The notes beneath the pieces were generated by a model. That model made no database searches, had not been told where the DNA came from, and was given only the letters and a program-made list of their open reading frames with translations. Both the position numbers and the translations under genes were made by a program. DNA of 64,000 nucleotides. Origin: Ectocarpus siliculosus (lineage: Eukaryota > Sar > Phaeophyceae > Ectocarpales > Ectocarpaceae). The stretch spans positions 542,333 to 606,332 of the forward strand of contig FN648619.1 of NCBI GenBank assembly GCA_000310025.1, written 5' to 3'. Within the stretch, counting starts at the first letter, position 1. Every line of letters starts with the position of its first letter. Below, in pieces: positions 31,893 to 64,000 of this stretch.

Positions 31893-32033
31893 TGAGTATT
31901 GGATTTGGTTGGGTGAGCCCCCCTGTGCCGGTCTGTGGTCCCGCCCAGTGCTTTCTTGTTAATTATCCGCTGCTCCACATCTTAGTTTTTGACCACCCAC
32001 GCCTCTAAGCCAGGTCTCGCCCACCCAAACTTT
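31893..32033 (+). repeat. Left inverted terminal repeat of DIRS-type element
   Basis: GAGTATTGGATTTGGTTGGG, then GTGGTCCCGCCCA, TCTTGTTAATTATC and CGCCCACCCAAACT. Each block has a reverse-complement partner in the right repeat at 35880-36014, in the same order. Confidence 0.85.
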
Positions 32034-32035
32034 CT

Positions 32036-34376: not shown

Positions 34377-35613
34377 TCAATCGACCTGACGCTGGTTGGT
34401 TTTGTCCATCGCGGAAAGAACGGCAAACATGGCATGCGTCCAAACCGACGCCGGTAGGATCGCCATGGTCATGCTCATGCACTTGCCCGCAACGCGCCGC
34501 AGCGTTCGGTAGGACACGCATCCATCGGCCAGGGCTGTTCGCAGCAAGTCACGCAGCTTGTCCAGATTCTCTTGGGGATCCGGAAGGTCATCGTCTCCGA
34601 ATCGCAGATGATGCAGAGGTATTGTAGAGCCGTGACCGGTCGAAGCTCGCACTTCTTGAGTGACAGGAACTGTCTGCAGAAGAGCGAGGTCAGCATGGCG
34701 ACGTGGGTCGCTTCCCCGGCGGCCAACCACTGATCTCGCGCCAGCAGACCATATGTTGCCAGGAAATTTCTCCGCCAAAAGTAATCGAGGTATGCTAGAG
34801 AAGGGGCGCCCTTGGAACGCTGAAATGCCGCCTTCGCTTCGCTGAGGGTATGGTAGACGTACGGGCTGAGGCTAAGAGGACGCACCAGCAGTAGTCGACA
34901 CCCTTGTAGGATTAACCGAAGAGAGGCTAGGACGATGGCTGCAGGAGAATATTATTTGAACGCGGAGGAGTCATCGGGTGACGTCATGTAGCATCCCGAC
35001 GACGCGATGCTAGCCACGCGCGCTACCGTGTCCATGGGGAGAGGTATTGTTCGTGTGCAGCTATTGAGCGGTCGAGCATCGTAGATAAAAGCGGATTGGA
35101 CGTCTCCACCAACTAAGCCATGATCATGCGAGGACGCACCGGACCTGTGGGGCTCTTGACGTCAGCCCACTGTGAAATGCAGCCTCTGGCCAGCAAGGAT
35201 TGCATTTCGGCGTCGACAAAGCTATCAAATTCCGGCAGCCAACGGTGGTTGGAGAAAACTCGCTGCGGGAAATGATCAACATTGTAGGGGAGAGACGGCG
35301 ATGCGCCTCTGAATTTGGGAAGCAGAAGGTCGTAAAGGTCGACTCCATCCTGGATGTACGAAGTCAAGGTATCCCGTGAGGAGTGATCACGGAGGATGTG
35401 GTCCTCCCAGAAACCAGCATGGGCTCGCACGAAGCCCGTGATGAAACCCTTGGAATCCCACACGGGAGCCTGCCATGGCAAGCGGCATAGGTCGCCTTCC
35501 ATCGGGTCCCGCCTGACCTCATCCAAGGTAGGAAACCGGCCTGAGGCCGCTGGAAAGGCGCCCACTTGCGCCCACTCCGACTCATCTGGCGGCAACAGGG
35601 GGGCCGGAGGCAT
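34377..35613 (-). pseudogene. Reverse transcriptase of the DIRS-type element
   Basis: Starts with the frame 35613-35113, including ARGCIS and PTGPVRPRMIMA, which ends in a stop. The reading continues after frameshifts with YDARPLNS and DDSSAF near 35100-34955, then PYVYHTLSEA, the active-site box SLAYLDYFW near 34790, and SLKKCEL, ending RRVAGKCMSM. The order matches the fingers, palm and thumb of DIRS/LTR-type enzymes. The catalytic box reads YLDY where YLDD is expected, which would remove one metal-binding aspartate. At least three frame breaks are present. Confidence 0.8.
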
Positions 35614-35879
35614 GATTCACTCCACACTTTTGTGGCGGAGGTCACGGGTCCGCAGCCATTCGTTGGCTGCAACCTACCCGCGAGCCAAGTGTAAAGAACG
35701 GTTCGGAGTGGGGCGACGCAGACAACAATTTCGAGGCCAAACCGTGGAGTGTCAATGAGAACAATGTGGGCCATTGGACATGCGACAGATGCCCCAGAGT
35801 AGAGGGGGGCGGGGGGGGATACAGCGATCGAGCCCCCCCCCTTGTTTTTTTTTGTTTTGTTTTGGGACAGGAAGCCTGA

Positions 35880-36014
35880 GTTTGGGTGGGGCGAGGCCCA
35901 GCTCAGAGGCTTGTGTGATCAAAGTAATATATTGTAGATCAGACAATCAACAGGAAAGTAATGGGCGGGACCACAGCCTTGTGCAGGAGGCCTCACCCAA
36001 CCAAATTCAATACT
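35880..36014 (+). repeat. Right inverted terminal repeat of DIRS-type element
   Basis: GTTTGGGTGGGGCGAGGC, GGCGGGACCACAG and CTCACCCAACCAAATTCAAT reverse-complement to the blocks of the left repeat at 31893-32033, with moderate divergence. Confidence 0.85.
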
Positions 36015-37667
36015 TACATTGAATGATTCTAGGGGAGGGACAAGCATACAACAGTAATTGGCTCTCCGAAGTTGGTTGTCCCCAGCAGTCCGGACGATCG
36101 CTCCACGATCGCTCCTCACACTCGAACGCCGGCAACGACATTGCTGCTGCTTCTACTGCCGTTGTTCCGGCGTTCCCCTCAGAAAAAAAAAATACAAACG
36201 GATAGACGGTCTCCCCGTTCGAGATACGTACTGTACGTATGTACTGAAATATTGCTATTGTGCTGTCTGTGCCAGCTTTTCTCTCCACAGCAGGGAACAA
36301 CATCAGGCCAGGGAACAAAATCAGGCGGCGCAGTGCCACCCAATGTGATGGCGGCGGAGAACAAAACATATCGAATAGGAGGACTAGCCATTACAGGTGG
36401 GTCTATTACATGCTCTCTTGTCAGGGGTGGGTGTACTTTGTACGGATCGGGCGGGATGGCACGAAGGTTACAATGCCAAATTTCCAGACATGTGCCGGGG
36501 TTTGATTGGTCTGACGGAGGTTTAGAAAATGCTTGACGTTCACTCCACAGGACCACAAATCCTGTACTACACCATAAGAATACGGGTCTTGGCACCCTAT
36601 GCGGTCGTCTATTTATGTTTTATTATTCTAGTTTTTTGTGCCAAGACGCCACGTACCCAATACCTGTGCGCAACATGAATACAACAGTTGGTCCTGAAAA
36701 TATATCGCACACCCCGTGCGATGACTCCGACCCGTGCGATTCTGAAAAAATGGAAAGAGGCGATGTGTGGTGTTTGGAACGCGCACCCCCGTGCCAAGAC
36801 TCCGATGTGTGCGATCCTGAGCAAATCACAGCAGACACAAACCAGTATTCGTGTGCATGTGCAGTATTGCACCATCAGGACCACAACATAACGACCGCAG
36901 ACACAGAAGCGCACCAGGACCAGTTGGTTGGTAGGTTGGCGCTGGAACGTTTTGGTTGCAGCGGGGTATTGGCAGGTGTGGAGAATGTTGTTTCGTGCAC
37001 GTGGCGCTGTCCTTCTATTATAGTTGGCATGCATGGAGGACGAAACATTTTGGGGTTTATTTCCGGGAGCAGGGTGAGTTCGAGTGAAAACTCGAGGTGT
37101 GTGGTGTAGTGCGTAGTGAACGTTCCGGTGCGGGGCGCAGCGCTGCATCCCCGATCTACACCGCCTTGTTGTGCCTCAGTCGCACATGTACCGTCGTGGG
37201 CAGCAAAGCCAACATATTCATCATCCATCTTGTTGTCCCCAACTCCGCGGGGATTACGGTGGTTTCTTCCCAACACCCAGAACATTTCCATACCAAACGC
37301 GTATACCGACTGTCGGTGGGATACATCATTGAATACTTGCAGTAGTTGCCTCGACGGTAACAATATTGATCAACGGAATGATCTGGCAGCCGTAGGCTTG
37401 AGAAATTGCACGCGATCGTTCAAAGGCATCCCGGACGTTCCAAGCCTTCGCTAAACATGAACCATACGTCGGGGTACGTTGGGGGCTTCACCGCATGCAT
37501 TAATGCTTCTCTTACTTGCGTCGATTCTACAGTACATCAACTTACGTGACACTTCTCGGACACATCACTAGACGAGCACCAGGCTAATGCCTTTTATCGC
37601 GCCTGTCTGTGCCCACAACGCGACAATCGCATTGCTGTTGAATGTCGGCATATTGCTCTGTTTCCAG
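36015..37667. other. Region upstream of the receptor gene; first exon(s) not resolved
   Basis: The receptor's first recognised exon starts at 37668 in phase 1, so at least one coding exon with the start codon and signal peptide should lie in here or further left, but none could be chosen. A Cys-rich open frame (36615-37109) contains a short direct repeat (PCDDSDPCDSE then PCQDSDVCDPE) of unclear meaning. Confidence 0.5.
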
Positions 37668-40600
37668 GGACTGAGGCGTTTCTCGAGTCCTTCGAGCCGA
37701 CGTTCAGCGCCTACCTGAACCAGACCGTTGGCGAAGTATACCCAGGTGTGGGCTTCATTGCCGTCCCTCTGGCCTTCGACGACGTTTGGGATGCCGTCTC
37801 GTCTGCGAGCGTCGACTTCTTGTTTCTAAACCCCGGATCTGCAAGCTGCATGGAAAGGTAACACGCGTTGTCTATCCCCGTTTCAAGAAGCGAAACCGCA
37901 AGGTAGAAATTGGCTCTCTCTCTCTCTCTCTCCCTCCCTCCCTGGCACCCCCTTTCCTTCCGCCTAAACGTCTCCCGTTTTCTGTCTCTTTGTCTCTCTG
38001 TCTCTGCCATTTTCCTGCTTACCCGACAACCCTCTGTGATATTCTTCAGCGAGTTTGGGGTCAGTGCCATCCTCTCGCTGAGAAACTTTCGCCAAGGGAA
38101 CGAGCTGAACTTGTTTGGAGGGGTGGTCATCACGGCTGCAAACCGAAGCGATATCACAGAAGTCGCGCACTTGCAGGTCAGGCCAAACATGATATGACCG
38201 ACCGCATTTCTTGCTCGGTGGCATAATAGTGCCAAGACCTTTTCATCAACTTGTAGGTGCAAGAGTTACGCTAGTCCTTGGAAGGAAGCCCGCCATCTCC
38301 CTTCAGCTATTGCCGAGTTTATTTTCGTTTCTCTGGGGGGAACGGGGTCCAACTCGCACACCAGTTTTTCGCATCGCGCACGTGCTGGCCCCGCCCACAT
38401 GCGTTAGAGGCAAAGCTCAAACAACCTCGCAAACGAGCCACGCCAAAAAAAAACGATTCCGTCGATCCAAGGCGCATATTGCCCTGACAGCAACGTGAAC
38501 CGCGCAAACACGCAGGACAAAGTTGTCGAGGGCGTGTCGGTGTCAGGTTTGGGGGCGTTTCAGCTCCAGTGGGGGCTGCTCCAAGATCAGGGGTTTAACC
38601 TCATGGCGGACACTGAGGAGGTTCGATTTGCGTACAACCAAAAAAAGGTGAGGTACGCTGCTGCTGTTGCTCGTTGTGATATCTGTTGGTGGTGTTCTTC
38701 ATGTTGTTGCGACTGCTGAAATCTCGCTTCCAACCTTGCTTTTCCACCCTCACGCGTCGAGTTCAAGTAGTTGGACCATGAGCCTTTCTTTCGAGAAGCT
38801 CCAAAGTCTGGATCGCTTCTGCGCAAGACCGACGCGGGCTCTGACGGCAGGGCAATCTGATTTCGACATGAATGTGGGTGTAGGTATGGACCGGAACCGA
38901 CTGTAGCTTCAAGACCAACATAGGTTCCGTGCGTGTTTCTTATCTACGTCTCGCAGATTGTCTACGACGTCATCAACGAAAACGTGGATGTCGGTTTCGT
39001 TCGAACCGACATGGTCGAGCGCATGGACGCTGCAGGTGAGATACGCTGACAACGACGATGTGAGTGTCCTTTGTGCCACCGAATTAAGCTGATACCAGCG
39101 GCGATGTCGTGTTTTAATGATCGCGGCAACGTTTCCAGCACCCACAACCAGGACCCCAGGCCCTTTCCAACCGCAACCGCAAACCTAGAGTGAGCAAACC
39201 ATACAATTTCGATGGAAATTGATGTTTGATCGGGCTCCGTCCCCACCATTCTTGGGGTTTCTAAATCGCCTGCGATGTACATGCCTCTCAACGTTACCAG
39301 CTTCCGACGCAATGTCTGCACAGAAGAACACGTTTCGGACATGTCTGTCGGGTGTCGAAGTCAAGAGAAAGACCAATCACCCCCGCTCCCTTCCTACGCC
39401 TTGCGAAGCCTCTGTCTTTCCTCGGCAAGTAGACAGATGTTTAGGCCCACGTGAGAGCTACGATCGTAATATTCCTGTCCGAACAGGCATTCCTTGATCG
39501 CTGCTGACCTGTAGGACTTGTTTTAACGGAAAACGAAATCTTAGGGAGAAACATGTCCAAAATTGAACTCCAGTCGCGTTCGCCGCCGGGTCTTGTGGCA
39601 TTTTCAGAGTACGCCTGCTTCGTTCTCCACCACCGCGTCACCCCCACGCTTGAATCATTGACGTCACCCGGCGAATCAGCACCGATCTTACGTCCACCTT
39701 TGTTCTCTATGTGTGTGCCTGTTTTCACTGAACGCAATGTGTGTGAAAGGGGAAGTCAATATTTCGGATGTCAACTTTATTCTCGTCCGGGAGGACATCG
39801 CTGCCAGCGGGTTTCCTTTCCCGTGTTCCACAGGTAGGGGCCCCGCCTCGCGGTTTTTGCGCTGCCCCCCTCACAGTTATCTGAAATGCCGAGACTTCGA
39901 GCAGTCCATAGTCATGGGGAAAACTTGGTGCTTGGGTTCTGGTGTGGCGTTCTTGAGTTGCAAGCAAGGCTGTTCCTCTTGGTCTAACTAATCAAATTTC
40001 CATACCATGGTACACTTTTGCAATATCGATGAAACAATAAACAACGTATGTAGAAGTTCGCGAAAACACGACGAACTTTCGGAGCTTAATGGGGTGGAGG
40101 ATTCGTTTCAATTCTCGAATAGAACATTGGCTTGGGTATGTTTTCCGCATCCGGCAACCTCGGGCGGAAGTTTGGATTTTGCCGAGGTCGCATTCTGGAC
40201 GGCATGCGAACGGTGCGAATTTGAACCGAACGATGTTCGAGATTCATAATGAGCATTCTGTGTTCTATCTTCTGAGATTCTGTACTCATTTGTTTTGCTC
40301 TCCCGTAATGGATATATGATCGATCTTGGCGGGGCATGTTGTTTCTGGCGCACTCGAGATAAGTACCTTGCTTCGGTTCGCCTATGTGCTCGCGGTCCGC
40401 CTCTGTTCATGAACCATTAGCAAGGGGAAAATGAGGTAGGGAATAAACGGCAAGCTCCCCTTCTCATAATCAAGGCAGTGTTGCAGCAGCAGCAGTAGCA
40501 GTAGCAACCAACCACAGAGTGATAAACAACGCCAACAGCGTTCAAGGGCAGAGCGGTCCGTCATCGCTCCCCGTCCCCTTGTTGTTGTCAAGCAGCCACC

Positions 40601-43600
40601 GAAATCGTCCAAAAACGTGTTGCTGTAGATTCGATTCCAGGAATCGCGTCACCCGTACCGTGTTCACCGCCCCCACAAAAACTCGCGCTCTTCTCTTGCA
40701 CTTCCCTGCATGCGTATGTATCCCGAGCGACAGATTTGGTGCCAGAATGGCCTTTACAGGCGTTATCCCACGTCCCGTCGGACCTTGCCAAGGAAGTGGT
40801 GGGTGCCCTTCTGCTGATCAACGAGACCCACGAGGCAGCCGTGTCCGGCGGGTACTCCACGTGGGATGTGCCTCTCTCTTACGCCGACCTCAGGTTAGTC
40901 TAAAGTCCAAGGAAATGGCCACGAGGTCCCTTGCGATAAACTCTCATGGATACGGGGGAATGGGATGAAGAGACCACTTAGAAACACACCGACCGGAGCA
41001 AGTGTTCTAAACTTTTCCTCGCCCGTGCCTTTCGTCGTGTTGTCCGCAACCTCCTCCGCGCAGTAGAACACAGCCTGTGGCGGATGCCCCGACTTGTTTT
41101 TTGCTGATCCCTGACGCCATGTCCCGCCCCCCGCTGTCGGTTTCGTCGTATCTCAATTGCATCTGCACCGTTCGGCACACCCTCTTTCCTGAGTTCACTG
41201 CTTCCCTATTTTCAATACAAACAACGCTTTTCGCACATGAGCTTGTTTCTCGAACCCGGGATCATGTGTAGAGAATGCCCGTCTTCGATGTAGCTGATTT
41301 TGATCAAACTTCACCTACCCGTCTTTCACCCTATGATGAGAAAAGGGAATGAACTTCGTTGTCATTCATCCTAACGAGAACGACAGCAGGGTACCCAATT
41401 ATCGTGTTTTATGCGGTGCGTGTGCTGGGAGGATTTTGGGCCCAACCTGGCGGGATATTTGATCGTATGTGTATATTCAGGGGACGTTGGGATGCTATCT
41501 TTGGACTAGAGGGAGGGTAGACACTGGATTTTCATCCCCCGCGAGGTTCCCTAGTCAAGCTCATATTATTAAACACCCGAGAAACAAGCAAGGTTAGCGT
41601 AGGTTGTGCGCCCTGGATTGCCTTCCGTGAGCTCCCTTGGGAGAATCGTCAGAGGGGCCGGGAAATTCGTCGAGGCATGTGCAACCGTTTCTCAATTTGG
41701 AAACAGGGTTGATTTTGCGCCAAGTTCCATGGGGTACCACACTCGCAATTCACACATACCGACACGATAGTCTTTTCGAGGTTTTCACTGGTGGCAATTT
41801 TTGATGGATTTCTTTGAACAGCAGTGGTTGCTGTTGCCTTGCTCGCTTTGGCAGACTGAACAAACGTTGGTGGCGTTTCCTGCAGGCAGGGGTCCTCACG
41901 ACCAGAACCCCCTCTGACAATCTCTCCTGGAGTTGCAGCTCCCACCGCTGTTACCTGTTAATCCTTCCTTACAACTTGGTCCAGTTCCCCATACATGTAC
42001 GCAAATCCCCAAACAACGGCGTATACCCGTTTCCGTCAACGTTTCCACCCGTCGCTGGCCTCCACTCACCCTGACCGACTGCTACCCGCCGCCTCGATTC
42101 ATGTGTGCCGTACCTTTCACGAAGTGCTCTACTATTGCAACTCGGGGTGCTGGATTCCGAACAAGGACATTGCATCCAGTCCGAGAACGTGTACGGGGCT
42201 GTAGTGTGCCCGGAAGGGTTTTTCAAGATCGCCGAGAATTTGTTCGACTCCAAGTGCACGGAACTCGGTAGTAAGTACGCCTTAGCACACCCCTAAGTTC
42301 GGAAGCGTCCTGCATCGCTTAGCCTATATGTTCTTGATGGGTTGACAGTTTGTGTAGACTAAACTTTACACATTTATTTTCTCGGGATGATGCCATTCGC
42401 TACCCAGCGTGTCATCAATATGTTACCCCCATGGTCTGACGCGATAGTTTTGGTCTGAAAGTTCTATTTTAGGTTCCGGACCATGCTGGCGTCGGTGGTT
42501 GTGTACAAGGGAGACAGCGGGATACCGGAGCTCGACGAAACAAGTCGCGATTTGAGACATGCGTGAAGAAGATGACAACTTTCTTTAGGTTACCGTTTTG
42601 TAAGCCGACGCCTGTATCTGATGCGTTGGTTCCTTCCCAATAACCGAAATTCCTTAAGCTAACGCACCTAATTCTTTCTGTGACGTGTGTTTCTCATCAT
42701 TCCGTCGATGGTGTGTCCCGAAACGCGGGCATGGGTTCTGGTGTGGATTGGGGACGACGACTATAAACACCGTAAATGCCTCACCCTTTTCAACTTTCCC
42801 GTCAGTTCTGTGTCTCCCACCAGCAGCCTATTATTTGAGTGTGTTGAACGCACGATCACCTCTTTTGGCGAGCGACAAAATATCGCGCTGCATGTACCAA
42901 CTATGTACGCGACGAACATACTAATTGACAATAGAGAAATCGCAATTATAGCCCAATCGGACCTGGCGAGGTTTTCCCTCTTCGCTACAGCCCCTCTCCA
43001 CCAACTGTGCTAGACAACAAAACGTGTGCAACAACGGTCGCGACTCAACCGCCCTCAACGAAACCAACGTGTATCGCATTCCTCGTTTTTCTCTCGAACA
43101 AGCAGGAACGTGCCCCGACGGTTACACCTGTATCTGCCGCCCCTGCGAGCCACTGCCGGAAACGGAGTTCTCGTACAGCCTCAATGTCTCTAGACAGTCT
43201 GTGGGCACGGGAGACTGCCAAAAAATGACCTCGTGCGCGGAAGGGGTGGTTGCTTTCTCAAACCTGACAGTCGGTGTGGTGGACAATTGGGGACCGGCGA
43301 GAGAGGTACTGTTGTTTTGAGGTGGACGCCGTTTTCCTGCACTTACGAGTCTTGTTCGTCTATCATCCGTGACACGCTTGTTGTAGATTTTCCTTAACTT
43401 TGTTGTTCATCATGGAGAGACCTCATTGACGCGGGCGAGCACTTGCATTTTTCTCGAGTTCCTGTTGACTCTCCAACATCCGGATACGCATGAACATTGC
43501 TATCTAACTTCTTGTCCTGCCAAGTAAACAGCAAGCCCCCGATGATTGGGCCTGATTTGTAGTATTCACCTGCCGTCACGATTTTCCCTCCCACATCCCC

Positions 43601-46600
43601 GCAGACGTTAGGCCTCAACCGCTCCGACACTCTGGAAGTTCACGTGATCACCGCCGGTGACCAGACGTCGTGCTACGCCGTCGAGCACGGACCCTTTCCG
43701 TGTGCAGAAAGCTCTGTCCATGGAGGCTCGGGGGCACCGTCACTGACCACTACTCAGACAGGTTGGTCTATTGGTCTCCTTACCTTGTGTTTGGAAGCTA
43801 ATGTCGACAGCCCGGGATGTATGCTTGCGTTGTCGATCGAAGCAACTCTCCACCAACGAGAATCATGGCACAACGAAACCGCTGTTGTGGTGCTCACCCA
43901 ACAACCGTCCTTAAAGATTGTGGTGCTACGCGTGTTGGGCCATTGAATCGGGGCGCACTGGTCGCTGTCTTCTTTCTACGTTGTGGGAATGGATAAACGT
44001 TGTGCAACCGTCCAAGGAGAAACTGGAGCGGGGGGAGGAGGAGGAGAATTCGGCCAAGAACCGAAATATTTTTGTATTCGCTCTCCTTCAACGTTAAACA
44101 TGCCAGGGTGGGACTATGAGGTTCCGGTCTTCGTTGAGACACCGGGGAGCACCTTGCTAAGGTTTATCGTGGACGGAAGGGACAGCGAGGGATCGCCCAC
44201 CCTTATGGGCGTGGTAGAACCCAGGTATCCGTGGAACGTTTTGTACATGTGTATTTTTCTATGCGACCTCCATGAGCCTTTGTGGTCCTTAGTAGATCAG
44301 ATTGATAGCATACGGCGGGGGAGAATGAGAGTGACAGTCGCGTTCTTGCGCAATTCAAAAACCCCGGCGAGTGTGCTACCCACGCTGATCCGTAGACCTA
44401 GCCGGTTCATGCCATGTGGTTACGCCGGCCCTGTCAACAATGGCAAACAAATGAGGGGAACTTACGTTCGAAATGAAACCGAACGCCGTAGGGAAAGAGT
44501 TGGGGTGATCATTGGGATGGTCTTCGGTAAGCACAACGGTCACAACAGCTCGAAACTTGAAGACGTCTGGGCGGGCGGAAAATCATGCCCAAAAAGCAGG
44601 GAAATGACTTAGGACTCTTCATACTCCAAGGTGGTGTTCAAACCCTCCGTTTTAGTTGTCGGACAACTTCCTCCTACATAGAGCTGGGGGGGTACCGCAA
44701 CAATGTATTTCCCTACCCGCTCGTGGGGGAGACTACCACCAAGCCAGGCCGTCCAAGAGATACAGCAAAGTTTCTACGAAAATTGATTTTTCGCATCACG
44801 AACAGAAAATTACAGCATCCACTCTTCGCCTTCCCCCACCCCACTCGCCGATCACCCAGTTGCGGGGATTGGGTGTACGAGTCGCACGTTGGCAGCTGCA
44901 ACAACAATGCTTCGCGATCGGTAGTTTTTTCCTTCGCTGAAATATCCCGCGAGTGCGAGCATTTCGTCGACCTCCCGGACAACTTCTATGGCATGGTGAG
45001 GACGTGTGTCTCGCTTAATTTGTCGAAGAAGTACCACGTACGTTGGGTTGCCTATTGCGTGTGAGTGATGCCGGACGTTATTCAACCACTACTGTAGACT
45101 TCTCGGACCACACCCGCAGAAGCGCCGCGTGCGAAGGAATACAATAGAGAAGCGGACTGCGTTCTACGCCTATGGGCGACCAACCAAGCAGCTATAGATA
45201 GCACCACATATATGACCTCGCTACTGGCACCGTGCCCACCATTCTCGGGGATCTTGGTCGACAGACGAAATAGCCGTTAGCGACAAAACGGGACAAAGAG
45301 ATGCGTTTAAATCGCCTCAGAGAATGGGGAGCGGCAACAATGGAATAATAGTGGAGCAGATTTGAAAGGCGGGGATGAAATAATAGTAGCTTCACGCAAG
45401 GGTTGATAGCTTCCAACGTGCCCAAGGGCACCACACACACACGCGCAAGCACGAAGCAGAATGAAGAAGTGCCAACACATGGTGTATCCACGCATGGCCC
45501 TGCTGGAGCCCGCGTACGTGTTTCGCGTTTCGCGTCCGTTTTCGAAGAACCAAGCTAACGATCTCCACAACGGTCCAACAACGGTTAGGATGCAACGTTG
45601 ACCTACCTTTCTCCTATCCCCGCCACGTTCCTTCTATTCGCCCCTCCAAGTTCTTACAGCATGCTCCTCCTCTCCTTCGTGCTGACTACCCCCTACCCTA
45701 TCCCCCTCAACTATGTACACCGTCTTGCCGGGTTAGGAGTGCGACTATGCTCCGTGGGGATCTATGGCTGGGATCGTGGCTATCACAATGAGCAGCCTGA
45801 TTGCCGCGGTGGCGGTGGCACTTACCGCGTGGACCATAATTTACCGGTGAGCGAGATTAATAACCCTCTACATGGAGCGCAACTAGGGCTGGGCATTTTG
45901 CATGCATGAGACTGTTGGTTCTCCTCCATGGTTGCCAGCAGTACCCCTGGAGATGATTACAGAAACAGTACAGTAGAGCTCCTTGGAACAGTGTGGGATT
46001 TCGACGATCACGGGACGTAGACGAATGATAGTGTGTAGTTGCCGCGTGATGCACTTTGATTTGATGAATGGTGTTGTACGAGATGGTTTACACCACGCTG
46101 TGAAGCAGGAGCGTACTATTAGCAGGAATCGACTGGAGTGTCGGCTAGGAAGGCGAACGAAGGTCTTGCGAAGACTGCACAGTTGGGGAGCTCGTGATTC
46201 AACCACCGAATGAAGTCGGCGTTGTGACTAGACTCGTTTTTCAAAGCACTACATGATTTGTGGCCACGCCCATTTGCATTTTCGCAGCTCAGGCATTCCG
46301 AACGATGAGGTTTAGGCCTCGACCTGGACAAACTACAGCGCGCTGGATCTGTGTCTACAGGAAAACAATCCGATACACACGCATCAATTTATTTGCGGAC
46401 CCTTCGGGTCCACTATATTTTCGTGCACCCTTTTAGGGGAAGTTCGCCTGTGACCACGGAAATCGACCGCGTCAAGTGTTGGACTAGGACGGACAGAAGA
46501 AGGTTCTGGGCAGCGAGAGCGGAACGTTTTTAGTGTGAAAACAACAACAACAACAGCAACCACAACAACAACGACAACAACCTCTCGACACCATTCTTGA

Positions 46601-49600
46601 ATCTTGAACTCGGCAGTAAAGCGAGGCCGATCGTTGCTGCGCAGTGGATCTTCTGCGTGGTGTTCAGCACGAATATCGCCTTGATGACGCTTGGGGCGGG
46701 GTCGTTGGTGGGGCCTCCATCGGACTTCACTTGCACGGCCCAGCCCATCCTGGTAAGGAAGTATTGCAAATCTCGCCACCCATTGACCGTTATATTCTTC
46801 TTCTTACCAGACGAACGGGTCCATCTTTGTTCCTTGCACGATACGTTAGTTCGATAACCCGCCCAATACAGTGTAGGCGACATACTCCTTCATTGAATAC
46901 CACACATAACCACCGGTTTTCAAGCCTGTCATGTGCCACGAGTCATCTAGTGTCTTCAACACTACAGACGAACACCGCGTTGCTGTTGATGTCGTTCGCT
47001 GTGTTCCCAATGGAACCGGTCGCTCCTCCTCATGCTGACGGAGACATGGTTCTGATGGAGACGAGACCTCGGAGTCAAAGAGGTCCTGTCGGACAGAGAC
47101 AGACAGACTTAAAAGGCAAACGTTCGGCACCTATGGCGATGATCACATCGCGGCAGACGGCCACAGTTGTAAAGTTCGACGGGCTCTTGCGTGCCCTCTC
47201 CTCGTGCCGTGATTCGGCCGTGCCTTCTCCCTACGTTTCTCTGGATCGCCGCCAATCAATATACTTTGCCATTGATGTCGCTTTCGGCGGCCCGCAGTAC
47301 TTCATGGGATCCGGCACGGCAATATCGTCCCTGTTTCTCAAGATGTGGAGGGTGTTAGTGGTTTGGAAGGCCGGGTTGAAGAGGATCCGGATTAAGAACG
47401 CCGAGCTGTTCAGGTGATGATACCAACTATCGCGCGTACTGGGAAATTGGATTGCCTAGGCGAATGTACGGATTGCCCAATCGAAGTAAGTTGAATTGGA
47501 AAAAACAAACCGGCAGGGGGAAAGCAGACCCTAACCGTAACCCCTACTCCGACTTGGCCGATTAACCTTTTATCCAGAGTGTTGCTTGCTTACTTGGGAA
47601 AACCTGCATAGATTTTGTGGAACGATTTCATGCTCGGTTGCGAAGGGCCTGTCACGGGAGTCAAAGGATGCCCGGGAGAGAAAAGAACGCCACCATCCAC
47701 AACCTGAAATGCCCTGCGAATAGTTCTTTCGGAGTCACGAACTGCCAGCTCGTTTCGTCGACTTTCGGCTGCCGCTGTTCTGAGGACCTGGGCGTTGGGG
47801 TAGCGCAGGCAAACACTCCAGGGGCGAAGAGGGCGTAGGAAGAGCCCACATACTAGGGATATTGTAGCTTCATGGAGAGCCGTGGGCCTCCCTACTTCCT
47901 TCAGAGTACGACATAACCTTGGGTCCAACCTGACAGCTGTCTCACGGATATCGGCAGGTACCTCGCGATATTTTGCACCGTGGATGTTGCTCTTCTGACG
48001 GCGATGTTCATCGTCCACCGCCCGCGCGCCAGCGTTGCATCTGTGGCCGAACAAGTTTCCGGCGTTCCGGTTAGCGTCGAACACATCGCTTGCGACTACG
48101 GAGAGCTTCATTTTGTCACCCAAGCGCTCAACATTTACCATGCTCTTATAGCCGTCGCTGGGTGTGTGACAAGCTTCAAGGCGCGAAAAGTGGGCTCCCA
48201 GTGTAAGAGCTGCTGGAGGCACACGGCAACGATAGTACGGTATCATCTTATCAGCGACCGAATTCTAGGGTGTATCCCATGCCCTTAATTGCACAACCAA
48301 AAGCAAAAAAATGTCTTCGCTTGCTCCAGTCACAAAGCACAAAGGACTCCCAGGGTAGAGACATGCCTGTCCCGTTAGCTGGTCGACCAGGCTCGCTGCG
48401 CTCCATGGGGTCTGAAAAACCGCATGTAGTCATGACTTGCTTTCTGTCGATATCCCTTCCTCCTTGATTTCCTGCCCGGTGTTGAACAGTTGTGCATCGG
48501 AATTACCAACTATGTTGTCTTCCACGGCCTTGCCTCTCTACTTACGAAGAGCTCCGATGTCATCGAATCACTGACTGCAGATATGGAGACGCATCCGATC
48601 GCGTTTACCATATGGTCGACGACCCTCATCGTCGGGACCCTCGCGATAGTCTCCATGTCAACCTCTTGCGACGCCTCCTGCAAGGTGAGCCACGCAGCAG
48701 CCTCTGCCCTGCCGTTGGTGTAGCGGGATCGGGTTCGGGCAGATGTTATGTTGTGATGAGGACGCCGTTCGTTCTGTTTGGACAATTTCAGCCTTCGTTT
48801 TCACTTAAAATGTAATTCTCACTACTACTGCTGAGGCGGGCCGGTCCGCCCGTTCATTCCCTTTGCTGAGGCGGTCGAGCACACCAAGGTGGCGGGCTCG
48901 CTTCCAAGGAATATGGTTTTGGGCGAGGCTCAAACCCTCATCTAGGGGGATCGGTTAGAGCTCATTTTCCTTTTTCCTCGATGTTCCAAATCACAAGTAC
49001 CACCCCCAAAACAATTTCAGGTAGAGGCAGCTTCTTACCGGTTGTCTCAGGTGTTCGGTTGAGCATGCATCTGTACATTTGGACTTCGACCAGCAAGTCT
49101 CCTTCGCTGAACATGTGCCACACTCTGAAACATGCGGAATAACTCTGCCCTATCTAGGGCCCGATACCCTACCGCATCACCGGCTCGCCCAAGGACCACC
49201 CAACGTCACTCCCGTAGAATTCCAGGAACCCAGACCCCAACTCCAGCGCTCGTACCTGTGAATCCTCGGCTACGTGGGCCTCTGCTGTCCCACGAAAAGC
49301 CGTCGTAATACATCAATTCTTCTCATGTTGGTGCCTTGGCCATTTTCTGGCCAAAAATCATATCCTATAAGCAACATGAGCCTCAAGTTTCGAATATCTT
49401 GCAGTCTTGAGAGCAGGCCGTTGGCGTGCTATGGTCGACCTACGATCGTGTACGTGATTACACAACGATAATGGGTACGAGATCGGTCATTCGTGGCACG
49501 ACAACAATAGAACTGATGCATGGTACATAACCTTAGTTGAAAATACAGCCTTTGCCATTTTTTTACTGTCATCTACCTTTCCACCATAGTTTCTGCATCT

Positions 49601-50670
49601 CGATGGTGCGTGCATGCTTCGCGATGGTCGAATAATTGCGAACGCCAACAACACCGATCAAGGCTCTCTTATCCCCCTGCCTCCCCCCCCTCAACGCCCC
49701 AAAACCCGCCAACCCATGTGTCATTGAACGCCCAAACCGACGAAAAGATACTCCTCAACAGCTTGGGCACCACGGTTTCCGCCACGATCGCCCTGGTGAG
49801 AGACGTTGACGTAAACTGATGTTCTCTCCGTAGCGCGCGCATCGGTGTCTTGTGTCGTTTCTATCGTGAACACCTGTAGAGTGCCCCTCGTGAGACGTTT
49901 TCTATGTAGGATGAAACCGGCGGATGCCCACGCTTGCGGGCCGATCGATACGTGTGCTTAACGCCGCTCTTTCTCTCGTGAGCCTGGAATTTATTCCGTC
50001 AAATTGTCCACCTATGCTCGCTGGCAGATATGTATCTATGGCCCTAAGGTAGTGTGGGTTCACTTCAGCCAGACGACCATCTACCCTGACCTACCTTCGA
50101 ATCCGGGAACGCAACTCCGGTCCCAGATATATCAAGACGTAAGTGGTGGAACAGTTCCACATGCACTGGTCGTTTCGTTGAAGTGATGGTGCATCACCAC
50201 ACTATACTGGCGATGGCTGTGGAGGATGCGACGCCCAACAAGTTTTATTCTTCGGTCGAATTTCCGTGTAGGATTCTTCATCGTTTCGGCGGGAAATATA
50301 ACGGTGACCACCCAACAAGCGTCATAACTTCTCCCTCCTACCTCTGTATTTGATTTCCCGCCTGGAGGGTTATGGAGTCGCGTTCATCAGTGGTTTTCGC
50401 TTCGTCCCGCTCTCTCATTTGTTTGATTCCCCGTCTACGGCTTCCAACACATCTCTCGTTTTTCTTCGTCTGTCTTTCTGCGGCCGACGTGAACGGCAGA
50501 CGGACCACTATTCACCCAAGACGAAGCAGATGACATCCGGCAAACCAGGGGAAATTGGCAAATTAGGATCACCCGGCAAATTAGGGGGATTTGGCGAATT
50601 AGGGAAATTTGGCGCCGAAGAAGGCGAAGTCGGCCATGACCAGGTCGTCGAGCCCAAGCCTCCTGGATGA
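37668..50670 (+). CDS. PhnD-type binding domain / Cys-rich / class C GPCR fusion receptor
   Basis: Predicted plasma-membrane receptor; ligand unknown. Exons: 37668-37857, 38050-38176, 38516-38647, 38957-39035, 39750-39833, 40734-40893, 42125-42270, 42991-43305, 43605-43761, 44107-44224, 44860-44995, 45737-45846, 46617-46752, 47298-47413, 47958-48189, 48490-48684, about 49754-49795, 50028-50138, 50500-50670. Exons 1-7 encode a phosphonate-binding-like fold (VPLAFDDVWDAV, VDFLFLNPG, VDVGFVRTDM, VPSDLAKEVVGALLLI). Then a Cys-rich stalk (CPEGFF, CPDGYTCICRPCEP) and a Cys segment ending CEHFVDLP. Class C GPCR marks: KARPIVAAQW, LFLKMWRVLVV, an extracellular-loop Cys (IACDYGELHF) and ICIYGPKVVWV at the last helix. 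The tail has Gly-X-Y repeats. Phases agree except between 42270 and 42991, where an exon is probably missing; start codon not found; the start of exon 49754 is a guess. Confidence 0.8.
46393..46582 (+). repeat. (CAA)n repeat-family element beside a receptor exon
   Basis: TTGCGGACCCTTCGGGTCCA, CCTGTGACCACGG, GACCGCGTCAAGTGTTGGAC and GGACAGAAGAAGGT lead into a CAA-rich tail that ends about 35 bases before the receptor exon at 46617. Same family as 51711-51955 and, inverted, 2638-2755. Confidence 0.8.
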
Positions 50671-51082
50671 CGCCAGGGTAGCAATTTCTCAGTGAGTGAA
50701 GCGGTGAAATTTGGCGCCGACTCGTTCTCAGATGTATTCGTGGAGCACAATATGATGGATGAATATCGGGAATCTTCAGCAGAAACGGAGGAGAATATTC
50801 ATTGATGGCCGGAGAACAGGACGCTTGGCGCTCTTGGAGTGTCTTCGGTTGTTGGAGAACCATTTAGTGGTGGTCTGGATTGAGTAGTGGATCGATGCGG
50901 TGGTGATGTTCCATTACATGGCGACCTCGTCGCCAACCGCCACCGACTTGTACAAGAGTCTCCCATCTCGGCCCGCCGTCGTGGGGGTAACCTTTCTCCA
51001 CACAATCACGAGCGAAGGCGCGAAGTATCAACCACGGCATGAAGTCCCGAGATGTGGAAGGTCGCGGCAGTTGTATTTTTTC
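50671..51082. other. Receptor 3' flank, nothing further recognised
   Basis: Follows the receptor stop. GAAATTTGGCGCCGA from the last exon (about 50606) recurs at about 50705. No other gene seen. Confidence 0.5.
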
Positions 51083-51923
51083 AGTCACAACGACGGAGCA
51101 GAACCGGTGTAATGTGATTCTCTCCTGTAATGCTGGTTTGATAGGGAAAACCGTTGTGTAAGAAGTTGGGTAGAAACTGACGACGGAGAACACTTGCACT
51201 GGGAGGAACTCCACGAAAAGCGAGAGACTCGACTCGGAATACTATACAATACGTTCTCACCCAGACCGTGGTAGAGAAAAACAGTGAAAGGCAGGACCTC
51301 AGCACAAGGCGAAGCTGACCCAGAAATGGACTTTCTGACTAGATCGTAGAGAGCAACAACAAGAACTATCACTCGGCGAGACGCGAGGGAAGATTCACCA
51401 ACTGTGTCCCCTCGACAAGATCTCTCCCATCGTAGTGACAGACCGCAATCTATCTGTGCACCACGTATGGCTTGAGAGGGACAATCGACGTGCAGTATTT
51501 TAGACTACAGTAGGTGCATTTTCTGATTCAGTCACTCGCGACAGAGCAGAACCGGGGAAGTGTGGTGGTAGAATGTGATTCTCCCCTGTAGCGCTGGTTC
51601 GTTTTGTAAGGCGTTGGGTAGAAAGTGACGGCGGAGAACACTTCACTGGCAGGATCTCCGCGAAAAGCGAGAGACTCCACTCGGAATTATTTTCGTTCCA
51701 CCCAGGCCGTTTTTTTTCTTTCTTTTTAGGGTTACCTCGCATAGCGTGTAGAGGCGAGCGGAGTGGTCTAGATTATCTGTCGTTGGCTTTTTTGGCTTGC
51801 GGACCCTTCGGGTCCATTATATTTTCGTATATCTCTCTTGGGTAGTAAGTTTGCCTGTGACCACGGGAATCGACCCCGTCAAGTGTTAGACTAATACGGA
51901 CAGAAGAAGGTACTGTGGGCAGC

Positions 51924-51957
<34 letters not shown>

Positions 51958-52188
51958 GACCGTGGTAGAGAAAATCAGTGAGAGGCAGGACCTCAGCAGA
52001 AGGTGAAACTGACCCAGAAATGGACTTTTTGGCCAGATCATAGAGAGCAACAACCAGAAGTACACGCGGCGAGACGCGAGGCAAGATTCGTTAACTGTGT
52101 CCCCTCGACTTGTAGATCTCTCCCATTGTGTAGTGGCAGACCGCAATCTGTCTTTTTACCACATATGGCTTGAGAGGGACAATCGATG
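51083..52188. repeat. Two-unit tandem repeat, second unit interrupted
   Basis: Unit 1 is 51083-51505. Unit 2 is 51539-51710 plus 51956-52188. Shared blocks in order: GGAGCAGAACCGG or AGAGCAGAACCGG, AATGTGATTCTC, GGAGAACACTT, CGAAAAGCGAGAGACTC, CAGACCGTGGTAGAGAAAA, GCAGGACCTCAGCA, CTGACCCAGAAATGGACTTT, ACTGTGTCCCCTCGAC and ATGGCTTGAGAGGGACAATC. No coding frame is shared, so the repeat is taken as non-coding. Confidence 0.85.
51711..51955 (+). mobile_element. (CAA)n-family element inserted in tandem unit 2, with target duplication
   Basis: Comparison with unit 1 shows 245 extra bases, from a T run at 51711 to a (CAA)n tract ending at 51955. The target CAGACCGT of unit 1 appears on both sides: CAGGCCGT at 51703-51710 and CAGACCGT at 51956-51963. 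On the minus strand the element starts with (GTT)n, contains ACGGGGTCGATTCCCGT, which has the shape of a tRNA T-arm, and ends A-rich. This suggests a SINE-like retroposon; the sense strand is not certain. Confidence 0.75.
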
Positions 52189-52527
52189 TTCAAATTCTTC
52201 TGTCTGCTGTCATTCGCGGCGCTGGGGCATCATATGCGCCGGCTGATGTAGCATTTTGGTTTGGCATTGAATATGCGCCAACAAATCAATCATGAAGCAA
52301 GATGAATTCCTCATGTACGCTCGTGTCACTGAGGTGAATGATGGTATATATTCACCCCCGAAACTAGATGTAGTGCGCATGTAACCGCTCTGGGTAGACT
52401 GCAACATATGTAATGGCTCAAGCTTCTGAAAATACGCGTTCAACCACAGGAATACGTATACCTGTACGTCTACGATACATGCGTTTTGGCGGCGGCGCAT
52501 GATGCGGCGTGAATCGATGATATATTT

Positions 52528-52737
52528 CATTTCCTCGTCGGGTCGTCCGAAGAGGAACCTCCCGATTCAAACCTTTCCTGGTATCCCTCCCGATTCTCCT
52601 CTGCGAACCCCCCCCAGCCCCTTTTGCCTTGCCTTGCTTGCCTCTCCGTCCCTCTCCTTGGACACACGCGATCTCTGCTTGGCCAAGGACAAGCACCGTG
52701 CCCAAAGGCTTAGGATCAGCGATAAGACGACATGGTA
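52528..52737 (+). promoter_or_regulatory. Conserved 5' flank of secreted-protein copy 2
   Basis: TTCCTCGTCGGGTCGTCCGA, AGAGGAACCT, GGTATCCCTCCCGATTCTCC and TCTGCG followed by a C run match the flanks of the copies at 18883 and, reverse-complemented, 30971. The C run precedes a Cys/Leu-rich stretch as in copy 1. Confidence 0.4.
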
Positions 52738-53190
52738 ATGGCGGAAAACGCCGCTGCTCGCCGGGGTGGTCGCCGCTCCCCGACCTCTCTCTTCCGAATC
52801 AAGGATCTTCACTAGCTAATCTTCACGCGCATCTGGCGGTCATGATCCTCCTACTACTGCCGCAGGCCACCGCCCTCAAACCGGCGCATAAGAAGAAGCA
52901 GATGGAGGACATGGAGCGGTTATACCTATACTCGTGCGCCGACCTGCCGGCCAGCCGTAACGGGCTTCACAGCCTCGTACACATCAGGGATGGCATCATT
53001 TGTGACGAGACCAAGGTGTGCTGTTCTCTGCTGTCTGGGTTGTGCGATCCGGCCGATCCCGTTGCTGTTTTTGAGTTGGGTGTGCAGCGTGCTTGTCCGA
53101 TCTTCTGTCGGCGCATGAAACTGCGATATCGAGGCGTGCAGTGAGGTCTCCCATGCACCCCCTCGAGATCGAATCGTCTCGGCAACCTCA

Positions 53191-61200: not shown

Positions 61201-63442
61201 GGGAGCAGACGGCACCCTTCTGCATGCCACCGAGGACAGGCAGAATCATTTCCGCCTGGAAATGAAGACGGTGGTGGAGGCCGCCGAGGCAGCCGAAGAC
61301 TTAGACGAGCACGAGACGAAGACGGCCGTACCCGACATCACCGCAGACAGCGTCGACCCCGACAACGAACGCCTGCAGCCGAAGACGCTTGTCGCAGCTG
61401 ACCCCGCTACAGCCATCGCCGCACTCATGCGTCGCCCAGCGATGACGGTCGGCGGGGGATTGACGTGGTCTGCCGAGGAAGAGTTCGATGCAGCCCTCCG
61501 CAAGGAATGGTCTCGTTTGAGGGACAAAGTGCTTGGACGCACGGCCAACGGACAGGTATAGGAGAACAAAGGCGCTCCTGGAAAGTCCCCACCGACGAAG
61601 ACCGATGAGGGCTACGGCGGCGATGACAATGGGGATCCCCGAAAAACGAACCGGAACAAAGACAGGTGCGACCCGCGCACACGGTATTGAGTTTGTTCGT
61701 CACAATCTTGGTCCTTGCAACCCCAAGGTGACTTTGCGCTTCGGCGATTCTCGCTGAACGGGAGTAGGGGGGCTCCCAGGCGCGCCTTCGTATCGATCTG
61801 TTACAATTTCTTTGAGGGGGAGAGGAACTCACCCGTGCGCCTTCGCCGTTGACACCATGAATTGGCAAGCAGGCACGTATAGCCAAGAGGATGTATCTAT
61901 AGGCGTCAAGGGTGGGCGTCGTTTGTCATCTTCCCATCGGTCGCTTTTGTCAGCGTTTTGTGTTGTGCTTGTTGTCAGAATCACAGGTCGTGATCGATTC
62001 CCGCTCGAAAACAAAGATTGCTTTGTGCGCGACAGGAACTAGCCAGCAAGAAGAAGTATAGGACTGGTTGTTGGTCAGAGTACCTTGGTTGGGGAGCGTT
62101 GAGAGCTTGGGCCAGGGCGTCGGAAGGGGAGAGGATGTTTCGCCATTCTAGCATTGCGGAAAAAAACTGGTCAATACCAATGTCATGCGGCTGCACCAAA
62201 ACAAACAACAACATGGCGAGCGGTGAAGTAGACATTGGGTCATCGTCCTGTAGCAGGTGCACGAACCACATTGACGAGCTCGTTCAAGGCGATGACGTCA
62301 CTCCATTCCTTACGTCCGATTATCAGGAGGAGTCACCGGCGGAACATCGTCGAAGAAGGAGGCGGGCAACGCAGCTGACAATGGGTTAACCGACCCAGAC
62401 ATCAACAACACCGGAATCTCTTGCGGCAGAGCCAGCCGTAGGCGAATACCGTGGGGCCGTAAGCGAATGAAGTGGAACGCTGAGGTCGCCGTCGACAGCG
62501 ACGGACCGCCACCGTACTGGGGCCACGACATGGTGCTTAAGGTCACCGAGACCGGTGACGTGGTGAGTGAGAAAGAAGGGGTCAGGGATTGATGGGGTAT
62601 CTATTGGAATGGCTATACCGGCAGTCAAAAACAATGGCAGACCAAAATCCTGGCGCAGGTAGAAGCGGTCGGTAAGTCAGTTCGATATTTTAGTACAAGC
62701 ATTTGTTTGGGGCAGCAGGAGAGCTGGCCTTGGCGAGTATAAAGCAAGCAAGTCGAGTTTTATGGCCGAGCCTGACTCCACGTCATCGCCGTCCCGTCAA
62801 TCCCTTTGGGTCGGCCATCGCGCACGTCACCCTCACCAGTAAATTGCCGAAGTTTCCCGCTCCCATTCCTTCGAACAGAGACTTTCACCACTTTTTTGGT
62901 GCGGCAGGCGTTTACATGGGCGGCCGTGAGCCTGAACCACAGCCCAGAGTAAGGTGAAACTCAACGAAATCTTGATCTGCTCCCTGCCACCATTCGTCTC
63001 AAGTCAAGTAGAACCCTTCAGTGCCGTCCGGGGAAAAAAGTCATGTCGGTCCATCGTAGGTCGGTGAATCTGTTCCCCGTTGCTACCTTTGTTTTTCAAC
63101 ATCCGTTTTCCGTTGAGAAGTCACGAATCTGGTGTCGCAGACACTAATCCCCGTGCTGGGCATGTGACTAAAGTGGTCATTGGTTCTTGCCCTCGACAAT
63201 AGCCCATGACAATCACGATGAAGTGTGGGATGTTCTGCAGATCGGATTCCTGTCCAACACGACAACGCCATGCCGAGCTCTACCGTGATGCCGAACGGAA
63301 TGTTGATGAACGGTGATTGTGTTGCTTTTTCATCTTGCCCAGCATATCGAAAACAACCTGGATGATATGTGATGCGGGTTGCTTTGGCTGTCGCCCATCG
63401 CATGGTTACCCTATCACAAGCAGGTGGTGAGACACAATGACC

Positions 63443-64000
63443 GCCTCAACACGACAGTACCTCTCTCGCCGGTCCCCAATTTTCCACCACACGGACTGTC
63501 AGGTTTGAGAATGCGACAACCCCTTCCGCGCACGAGGTCATTTTTGCGCAGTCTCCCGTGCCCACAGACTGTCCAGAGACATTGAGGCTGTGCGAGAACT
63601 CCGTTGCCGGCATTGGCTCGCACGGGCGGCAGACACAGGTGTACCCGTCGGGGCACGTTCCTGCTTGTTCGAGAGAAAAACAAGGCATGCGAAACGAGCT
63701 GGATTCTTTGAGGGCGGTTGAGGTCGCGACCGTTGTTGCGCACGTTTTATTGGCCTGACGCAGTTGGTGGAGCGGGGCTGTAGCGAAGAGGGGAAACCCC
63801 GCCTGGTCCGATTGGGCAACTCTTGAGACTATTTTTTTGTCATGCGTGTGGTCGCCGCGCAGTTGCTACCTGCAGCGCGATGTATTGTTTCTCACCTGAA
63901 GAGGTAATCGTACATGCAACACATTTGGCAGACAATATTGGTGGGCGACACAGAACTGACGGGAAGGTTGAAAAGGGTAGAACGTTCACGGTGCTTACAG
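63443..64000 (-). pseudogene. Inverted partial copy of the receptor's Cys-rich exon
   Basis: On the minus strand this matches receptor positions about 42765-43325, both intron (CACCCTTTTCAACTTTCCCG-like, then TCAGTTCTGTGTC) and exon. Conserved peptide parts include FSLEQAGTCPDGYTC, CRPCEP, SVGTGDC and NWGPARE, and the donor after GARE-like GCGAGAGAG is kept. Relative to the receptor, a Cys codon TGC has become CGC and one extra C shifts frame shortly after, so the exon is not translatable throughout. The match runs to the window edge, so more of an inverted receptor copy may lie beyond. Confidence 0.8.

What the first reader, a model, noticed from the sequence alone, without database searches (positions are those of the whole stretch)
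37668..50670. Receptor fusing a bacterial-type PhnD binding domain to a class C GPCR
Seen: phased exons join a PhnD-like fold (VDFLFLNPG, VDVGFVRTDM, VPSDLAKEVVGALLLI) through a Cys-rich stalk to class C GPCR helices (KARPIVAAQW, LFLKMWRVLVV, ICIYGPKVVWV). Known: class C GPCRs such as GABA-B and metabotropic glutamate receptors usually carry a type I periplasmic-binding fold, while PhnD-type domains occur in bacterial phosphonate/phosphite transport and in some sensor kinases. Inference: ligand sensing by a type II binding fold wired to a G-protein module, possibly for phosphonates or related anions.
Basis: partly seen in the sequence, partly recalled or inferred. Interest (0 to 1): 0.85.

Follow-up and report, generated by a model that had tools for sequence, protein, structure and literature searches.

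The report
Algal receptor with borrowed bacterial sensor
A gene in what looks like a brown alga appears to join a bacterial-type sensing domain to a cell-surface receptor of the glutamate/GABA-receptor class; similar grafts are known in some fungi, but not with this sensor in the papers searched.

Summary
Eighteen hand-spliced exons (36291-50138, + strand, GT-AG, consistent phases, no stop, 820 aa) match Phosphonate-bd (PF12974, 74.0 bits, cut-off 27) and then class C 7tm_3 (PF00003, 73.4 bits, cut-off 33.5) in one model. A partial inverted duplicate supports exons 2-9: 0 gaps and 6.2% substitutions in exons against 17.4% and 21.5% gap columns elsewhere. The join to the helices is inferred: no transcript is available, and if the weak exon-9 donor is not used a stop follows four codons later in both copies. 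Coding signal in exons 10 and 12 favours the join. Two corrections to the interpretation: type II binding folds on class C GPCRs are already published in fungi and Plasmodiophora; and the domain resembles bacterial sensor domains (18 of 18 relatives scanned carry a signalling output), with the STS motif of PhnD/PtxB replaced by GLG. The ligand is unknown; phosphonate is not favoured. Verdict: probably a real, unusual receptor, a new variant of a known kind.

The parts
36291..36396 (+). Exon 1 (first one found; left edge uncertain): N-terminal strand of the binding domain, ...NKTYRIGGLAIT
   Evidence: similarity to copy B starts at 36324 and aligns with 21 gaps; donor GT kept in B; an 18-bp tandem repeat at 36291-36326 blurs the acceptor; frame not favoured by codon usage
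37668..37857 (+). Exon 2, PhnD-like domain (VDFLFLNPG)
   Evidence: splice sites kept in copy B, 0 gaps
38050..38176 (+). Exon 3, PhnD-like domain
38516..38647 (+). Exon 4, PhnD-like domain (SGLGAFQ at the site of the PhnD/PtxB STS motif)
38957..39035 (+). Exon 5, PhnD-like domain (VDVGFVRTDMVERM)
39750..39833 (+). Exon 6, PhnD-like domain (SGFPFPCST)
40734..40893 (+). Exon 7, PhnD-like domain (LVPEWPLQAL...SDLAKEVVGALLLI)
42125..42270 (+). Exon 8, end of PhnD-like domain and start of Cys-rich stalk
43103..43305 (+). Exon 9, Cys-rich stalk (CPDGYTCICRPC). Its donor is weak; if unspliced, a stop follows at 43318-43320 in this copy and at the same place in copy B
43605..43761 (+). Exon 10, stalk (edges less certain); no ATG-led frame of 12 codons or more between exon 9 and this exon
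44107..44161 (+). Exon 11, stalk (tentative)
44896..44995 (+). Exon 12, stalk (tentative edges)
45737..45846 (+). Exon 13, TM1 of the class C module; a Met just before TM1 is the only own start seen inside it
46617..46752 (+). Exon 14, TM2 and the Cys at the top of TM3
47298..47413 (+). Exon 15, TM3 (LFLKMWRVLVV)
47937..48189 (+). Exon 16, TM4, ECL2 with a Cys, TM5 (right edge uncertain)
   Evidence: Unspliced ORF 47917-48285 matches 7tm_3 at E 1.6e-5
48490..48684 (+). Exon 17, TM6 and TM7 (right edge uncertain)
   Evidence: mostly outside the Pfam match, placed by hydropathy
50028..50138 (+). Exon 18, end of TM7 (IYGPKVV) and start of cytoplasmic tail (tentative: no coding signal)
63441..64000 (-). 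Window part of copy B, a partial inverted duplicate of 36324-43325 that goes on outside the window; no helices found in it, and an in-frame stop in its exon 3 (outside the window)

Best explanation
One gene encodes a cell-surface receptor: an extracellular bi-lobed type II binding domain of the PF12974 (PhnD) family, a glycosylated Cys-rich stalk, a class C seven-helix domain and a cytoplasmic tail. The binding domain descends from the sensor domain of a bacterial transmembrane signalling protein (the family that sits on histidine kinases including TtrS, GGDEF/EAL proteins and chemoreceptors), gained by an ancestor of this alga and grafted in place of the usual type I flytrap. Most likely mechanism: a small, probably anionic, outside molecule closes the two lobes; the movement passes through the stalk to the seven helices and activates a heterotrimeric G protein. 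Shown: the domains, their order on one strand, open frames with matching phases, constraint on exons 2-9, kinship to bacterial sensors, G-alpha exons in the genome. Inferred: single transcript, surface location, dimerisation, G-protein coupling, transfer from bacteria, nature of the ligand.
For: Model and Pfam hits. Contrast with copy B: 69 substitutions and 0 gaps in 1121 columns of exons 2-9, against 921 of 5297 aligned columns substituted and 1455 of 6752 columns gapped elsewhere; nonsynonymous change below synonymous over nine exons, ratio 0.47, Fisher p 0.0013. Codon usage learned on exons 2-9: the modelled frame scores best of three in 9 of 9 later exons, with near-ties in exons 15 and 18; against open stretches of the gene's own introns, exons 10 and 12 lie in the top 0.3% and 0.2%, exons 13-17 in the top 4.4% or better, exon 11 at 5.4% (overlapping stretches, so these are not strict probabilities). 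No ATG-led frame of 12 or more codons lies between exon 9 and exon 10, so exon 10, if coding, must be joined to something upstream. 9 of 9 sequons lie before TM1. Relatives: 111 plasmid records; 193 genome stretches, 80 kept, up to 38% identity; 18 of 18 scanned relatives carry PF12974 plus a signalling output: 6 HisKA/HATPase, 4 GGDEF, 6 GGDEF+EAL, 1 MCP, 1 LuxR-type HTH. The algal domain falls among sensor domains in the tree. G-alpha exons in the genome. TM3 Cys and K..R shared with mGluR5. The same kind of fusion is published elsewhere.
Against: No cDNA. The exon-9 donor (GAGAG/GTACTG) is weak, and reading on meets a stop four codons later in both copies; copy B's similarity ends about 5 bases after that stop, so B does not test the join and would also fit a gene that ends there. 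The Met at the TM1 border could be an own start for the helices. Exon 1's frame is not the best by codon usage and exon 18 has no coding signal. No start or signal-peptide exon assigned: a strict scan of 31000-36400 found none, a looser one of 33500-36400 found three weak candidates. The algal branch in the tree is long (1.77), and E. coli PhnD, the only known transporter protein in it, is far longer (9.32), so the tree hardly tests kinship to transporters. The algal domain alone finds no solved relative (best E 0.12, an unrelated-looking lipoprotein). 8 of the 25 plasmid hits listed are annotated as PhnD/SsuA-family binding proteins; their architecture was not scanned. No second complete copy in the genome. 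Eukaryotic relatives could not be searched.
Confidence: 0.75

Rival explanations
1. Two neighbouring genes: a PhnD-like Cys-rich protein that ends at 43320, and a class C receptor with a short N-terminus.
For: A stop four codons past the exon-9 donor in both copies, a weak donor, and copy B's similarity ending about 5 bases after that stop; copy B carries the first half alone; a Met stands at the TM1 border; no transcript joins the halves.
Against: Exons 10 and 12 between them score as coding and have compatible phases; no ATG-led frame of 12 or more codons before exon 10. Copy B is broken by an in-frame stop, so it is no proof of an independent gene. A binding domain ahead of the helices is the rule for class C receptors.
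Confidence: 0.16
2. The locus is a decaying pseudogene.
For: Copy B next door is broken; the segment between TM5 and TM6 looks short in the model; no start exon assigned; exon 18 lacks coding signal.
Against: 18 proposed exons without a stop; nonsynonymous change below synonymous between the copies; codon bias kept in most of exons 10-17.
Confidence: 0.07
3. The binding domain is a true phosphonate/phosphite receptor, as the first reader suggested (a question apart from the gene model).
For: PF12974 is named for phosphonate; the best solved relative by profile is PtxB, E 6.8e-8.
Against: The STS motif of PhnD/PtxB is GLG here (its role in ligand binding is recalled, not read); scanned relatives are sensors, and two, TtrS and an Azospirillum kinase, lie beside tetrathionate-reductase(-like) genes; members of the family are reported to sense tetrathionate/thiosulfate or bind sterols (PMC5408782, PMC11293645, PMC10942540, passages read).
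Confidence: 0.08

Closest known systems
Fungal class C (Glutamate-family) GPCRs with type II binding domains (Allomyces macrogynus and SPPG_ sequences, by their figure Spizellomyces punctatus; PMC3251606, section 20 read)
   Same: Binding domain of Pfam clan CL0177 ahead of a class C seven-helix module; no NCD3G
   Different: Domains there are LysR_substrate, PBP_like_2, OpuAC and SBP_bac_1, not PF12974; fungi, not a brown-alga-like genome
Anaerobic gut fungal class C GPCRs (PMC5168858, passages read)
   Same: Almost half carry an N-terminal SBP type II domain; several have up to 10 cysteines in the N-terminal part that do not align to NCD3G
   Different: Their domains resemble sugar-uptake binding proteins
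Plasmodiophora brassicae 7tm3 fusions (PMC4815078, passages read)
   Same: Seven proteins join 7tm3 with SBP or PBP domains
   Different: SBP_bac_1 and PBP_like_2; described there as putative transporters
Diatom class C GPCR candidates (PMC3727952, passages read)
   Same: Photosynthetic relatives if the host is a brown alga; seven have PBP-like N-termini
   Different: PBP1 domains, and no evidence of a Cys-rich domain reported
Bacterial TtrS-type sensor kinases and their GGDEF, EAL and MCP cousins
   Same: The whole domain aligns at 22-38% identity, sharing VDF..NPG, VD.G.VRTD and ST.L.PEWP stretches
   Different: Output is a kinase, cyclase or chemotaxis module; the alga has lost the Tyr after NPG and the Tyr of LYPEW that 20 of 20 aligned relatives keep

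Membership tests
Class C GPCR | Seven-helix domain matching 7tm_3 (PF00003) | tested here: met
   73.4 bits, cut-off 33.5; the match covers TM1-TM5 and the edge of TM6; TM6-7 by hydropathy; depends on the splicing of exons 13-17
Class C GPCR | TM3 Cys with ECL2 Cys, K..R in TM3, PK at the end of TM7 (recalled as class C features) | tested here: met
   FTCTAQ, EHIACDY, FLKMWRV, IYGPKVV in the model; the last lies in tentative exon 18
Class C GPCR | Type I flytrap (ANF_receptor, PF01094) at the N-terminus | tested here: not met
   No PF01094 in the model; PF12974 in its place. Published non-animal class C receptors also lack it
mGluR/CaSR/T1R branch | NCD3G Cys-rich domain | tested here: not met
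   No Pfam match in the stalk at E 1; 14 Cys present
PF12974 Phosphonate-bd | Profile score over the curated cut-off | tested here: met
   77.1 and 74.0 bits, cut-off 27
PhnD/PtxB phosphonate or phosphite transport proteins | STS motif in the cleft (role recalled) | tested here: not met
   GLG at that place
PhnD/PtxB phosphonate or phosphite transport proteins | Partner ABC permease and ATPase | not tested
   No search for them was made
TtrS-type bacterial sensor domain | Full-length similarity to transmembrane sensor domains | tested here: met
   111 of 111 plasmid hits cover at least 80% of the query
TtrS-type bacterial sensor domain | Binds tetrathionate or thiosulfate | not testable with these tools
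   Needs binding assays; neighbour genes of the closest relatives give no consistent hint
Functional G-protein-coupled receptor | Activates a heterotrimeric G protein | not testable with these tools
   G-alpha exons exist in the genome

The most novel reading that the evidence does not exclude
A brown-alga-like lineage captured the sensing half of a bacterial oxyanion sensor and wired it to G proteins, giving a G-protein-coupled receptor for an inorganic or small organic oxyanion (sulfur, phosphorus or arsenic), a ligand class with no class C receptor known to me.
Probability: 0.2. Interest if true: 0.75.

Novelty: new variant of a known kind. Interest (0 to 1): 0.48.

Why it matters
If the two halves are one gene, it extends to a brown-alga-like genome, with a different bacterial module, the pattern reported in fungi and Plasmodiophora: class C seven-helix domains combined with bacterial binding folds more than once. 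Here the donor fold looks like a sensory domain rather than a transporter protein, so a domain already able to signal across a membrane would have been reused. The domain can be expressed alone and screened for ligands, which could identify an environmental cue sensed by the alga.

Tried and rejected
Searching the genome with PF12974 exon by exon gave 0 matches: short exons hide the domain, so I spliced by hand and searched again. Copy B was hoped to be a second complete receptor; its similarity ends about 20 bases after exon 9 and about 5 after a stop in the read-through frame, and tblastn found no convincing match to the helices on its side (best about E 0.04 apart from local repeats), so it supports only the first half. 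Viral contigs: 7 pattern matches, none a relative; with the alignment, 2 relatives. A tetrathionate-like ligand was considered because TtrS on an E. coli plasmid lies beside ttrBCA and an Azospirillum kinase beside dsrO/nrfD/molybdopterin genes. A second Azospirillum and a Rhizobium locus did not show this (the latter has a cytochrome c gene), and 15 neighbour ORFs that I scanned in 9 loci of closer relatives (L025, L026, L027, L031, L032, L034, L068, L082, L083) were mixed: MgtE, multiheme cytochrome, dihydrolipoyl dehydrogenase, kinases, outer-membrane proteins, MFS, a chemoreceptor, a ModA-like binding protein, PGA_cap; 4 of 15 matched nothing at the limits used. I therefore do not name a ligand. 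Of 10 other window ORFs scanned with Pfam only the topoisomerase II exon matched.
Full report
WHERE IT LIES. The window is contig C138:542333-606332 of a 189.5-Mb assembly in 492 contigs. 150 EsV-1-7 repeat matches (PF19114; 150 scored of 880 first-look candidates, a lower bound) suggest a brown alga; that this repeat is typical of brown algae is recalled. No species name is available.

GENE MODEL. Choosing splice sites by frame and site quality gave 18 exons from 36291 to 50138, each AG...GT with consistent phase, 820 residues without a stop. Pfam finds PF12974 at residues 62-273 (74.0 bits, E 1.5e-20) and 7tm_3 at 520-726 (73.4 bits, E 3e-20), both over their cut-offs. Of 10 unspliced ORFs scanned first, two matched 7tm_3 (E 0.028 and 1.6e-5, under the cut-off) and one PF12974 (E 0.18). 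By sequence the helices are nearest, among solved structures, to mGluR5 (E 4e-4); the algal binding domain alone finds nothing convincing (best E 0.12), while a three-sequence profile finds PtxB (E 6.8e-8).

CHECK FROM A DUPLICATE. A second copy of the first half lies just downstream in inverted orientation, from window 63441 to beyond the window end. Between the copies, exons 2-9 show 69 substitutions and no gap in 1121 columns; the rest (introns and exon 1) shows 921 substitutions in 5297 aligned columns and 1455 gap columns of 6752. The splice dinucleotides of all nine exons read AG/GT in both, though exon 1 aligns badly (21 gaps). Over the nine exons dN/dS is 0.47, Fisher p 0.0013. This copy has an in-frame stop in exon 3. 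Its similarity ends about 20 bases after exon 9, so it cannot test the join. tblastn of ORFs of 25 aa or more from 42.9-51.5 kb found no convincing second copy of the helices on its side, and the genome shows no close paralogue of stalk or helices; two other, distant 7tm_3 exons exist.

IS IT ONE GENE? Against: the exon-9 donor is weak, and if it is not used the frame ends four codons later, at 43318-43320, in both copies (AREVLLF and AREVLSC, then TGA); a Met at the TM1 border could start a receptor without an outer part. For: the three proposed exons between have open frames in phase, and exons 10 and 12 score above 99.7% and 99.8% of open stretches of the gene's own introns under codon usage learned on exons 2-9 (exon 11: 94.6%; exons 13-17: 95.6% or more; exon 18: 56%; stretches overlap). 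No ATG-led frame of 12 codons or more lies between exons 9 and 10. In the three-frame comparison the modelled frame is best in 9 of 9 exons 10-18, by 0.01 in exon 15 and 0.02 in exon 18, but not in exon 1. All 9 N-glycosylation sequons precede TM1, and 14 cysteines lie between residues 309 and 515. The same kind of fusion is published in other eukaryotes. I put the single-gene reading, with the mechanism below, at 0.75.

WHAT THE BINDING DOMAIN IS. tblastn of the domain found 111 plasmid records. Of the 25 listed, 9 are annotated sensor histidine kinase (eight Azospirillum at 32-33.5%, one Rhizobium at 30%), 6 ATP-binding protein, 8 PhnD/SsuA/transferrin-family binding protein, 1 hypothetical, 1 without annotation. 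Of 15 rows spread over the ranking, 4 are TtrS, 7 sensor histidine kinase, 1 ATP-binding, 1 PhnD/SsuA-family, 2 without annotation. A genome scan gave 193 relatives of 286 matched stretches, 80 kept, best 38%. I examined 49 of those 80 plus both viral-collection loci. Eighteen of these 51 ORFs, chosen by me for closeness or for a long region after the domain, were scanned with Pfam; all 18 join PF12974 to a signalling output: 6 histidine kinase, 4 GGDEF, 6 GGDEF+EAL, 1 MCP, 1 LuxR-type HTH. One of the 51 (L099) has almost nothing after the domain and was not scanned. A tree of 54 rows (48 of the 51 domains, three short ones dropped; plus the alga, E. coli PhnD, TtrS and three kinases) places the alga in a 15-row fork (99/95), next to three gammaproteobacterial sensors at 87/78; the algal branch is long (1.77) and that of E. 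coli PhnD longer (9.32), so the exact neighbour and the contrast with transporters are unsure. E. coli PhnD and PtxB carry STS where the alga has GLG; that STS holds the phosphonate is recalled (the paper is not held). Two Tyr kept in 20 of 20 aligned relatives (after NPG, and in LYPEW/LYPDW) are changed in the alga, so its ligand may differ from theirs too.

LITERATURE. Eight searches of the open-access library, of which I saw the ranked listings, showed no paper describing PF12974/PhnD on a GPCR; (30 of 34 papers listed) the one paper with both PhnD and GPCR is a biosensor review. They did show that type II binding domains on class C receptors are known: fungi (PMC3251606, section 20 and passages), gut fungi (PMC5168858, passages) and Plasmodiophora (PMC4815078, passages). 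Diatom candidates carry PBP1 domains (PMC3727952, passages). Non-animal class C receptors carry varied outer domains (PMC12716839, section 9 and passages). TtrS/ThsS sensing is from PMC5408782 and PMC11293645, sterol binding by BstB from PMC10942540 (passages). Ectocarpus GPCRs and G-alpha genes are mentioned in PMC3879662 (passages). PMC8687355 (passages) added nothing. Most subscription papers could not be checked.

MECHANISM. By analogy with class C receptors, ligand closes the flytrap, the stalk transmits, and the helices act on a G protein. G-alpha exons are present in the genome (22 matches on 7 contigs, 9 over the cut-off). The coupling itself is inference.

VERDICT. Observation confirmed; interpretation partly supported; new variant of a known kind.

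Noticed in passing
window 63441-64000 (-) and contig C138 up to about window-equivalent 70655: Partial inverted duplicate of the binding-domain half, with an in-frame stop in its exon 3 and no helices found; exons far better conserved than introns.
   Followed up: yes
window 905-1597 (+): Exon matching DNA_topoisoIV (PF00521, E 1.3e-22): a topoisomerase II gene upstream.
   Followed up: partly
G000:C17 around 1175605 (L001, L123): Another 7tm_3 exon (32.9 bits) with a nearby exon weakly like a Filamin repeat (PF00630, E 0.0075, under its cut-off): perhaps a class C receptor with a different outer domain.
   Followed up: partly
G000:C3:3813519-3813689 (-) (L122, L125): The only ANF_receptor (type I flytrap) exon found in the genome by the exon-wise search (30.3 bits there, 32.4 bits in hmmscan).
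   Followed up: partly
window 46393-46570 and 51797-51957: A repeat, 76.5% identical over 183 columns, one copy in the intron between TM1 and TM2, the other among local repeats at 51080-52192.
   Followed up: no
window 18838-19428 and 52521-53141 (+): Two ORFs share a similar hydrophobic stretch (AVMILLLLPQA); no Pfam match; possibly a repeated element.
   Followed up: partly
window 25975-26673 and 60947-61558 (+): Two ORFs share FKVGEELRY; the first had no Pfam match, the second was not scanned; possibly a repeated element.
   Followed up: partly
L026 (cyanobacterium MAG): A PhnD-type sensor on a methyl-accepting chemotaxis protein, with another chemoreceptor gene just upstream.
   Followed up: partly
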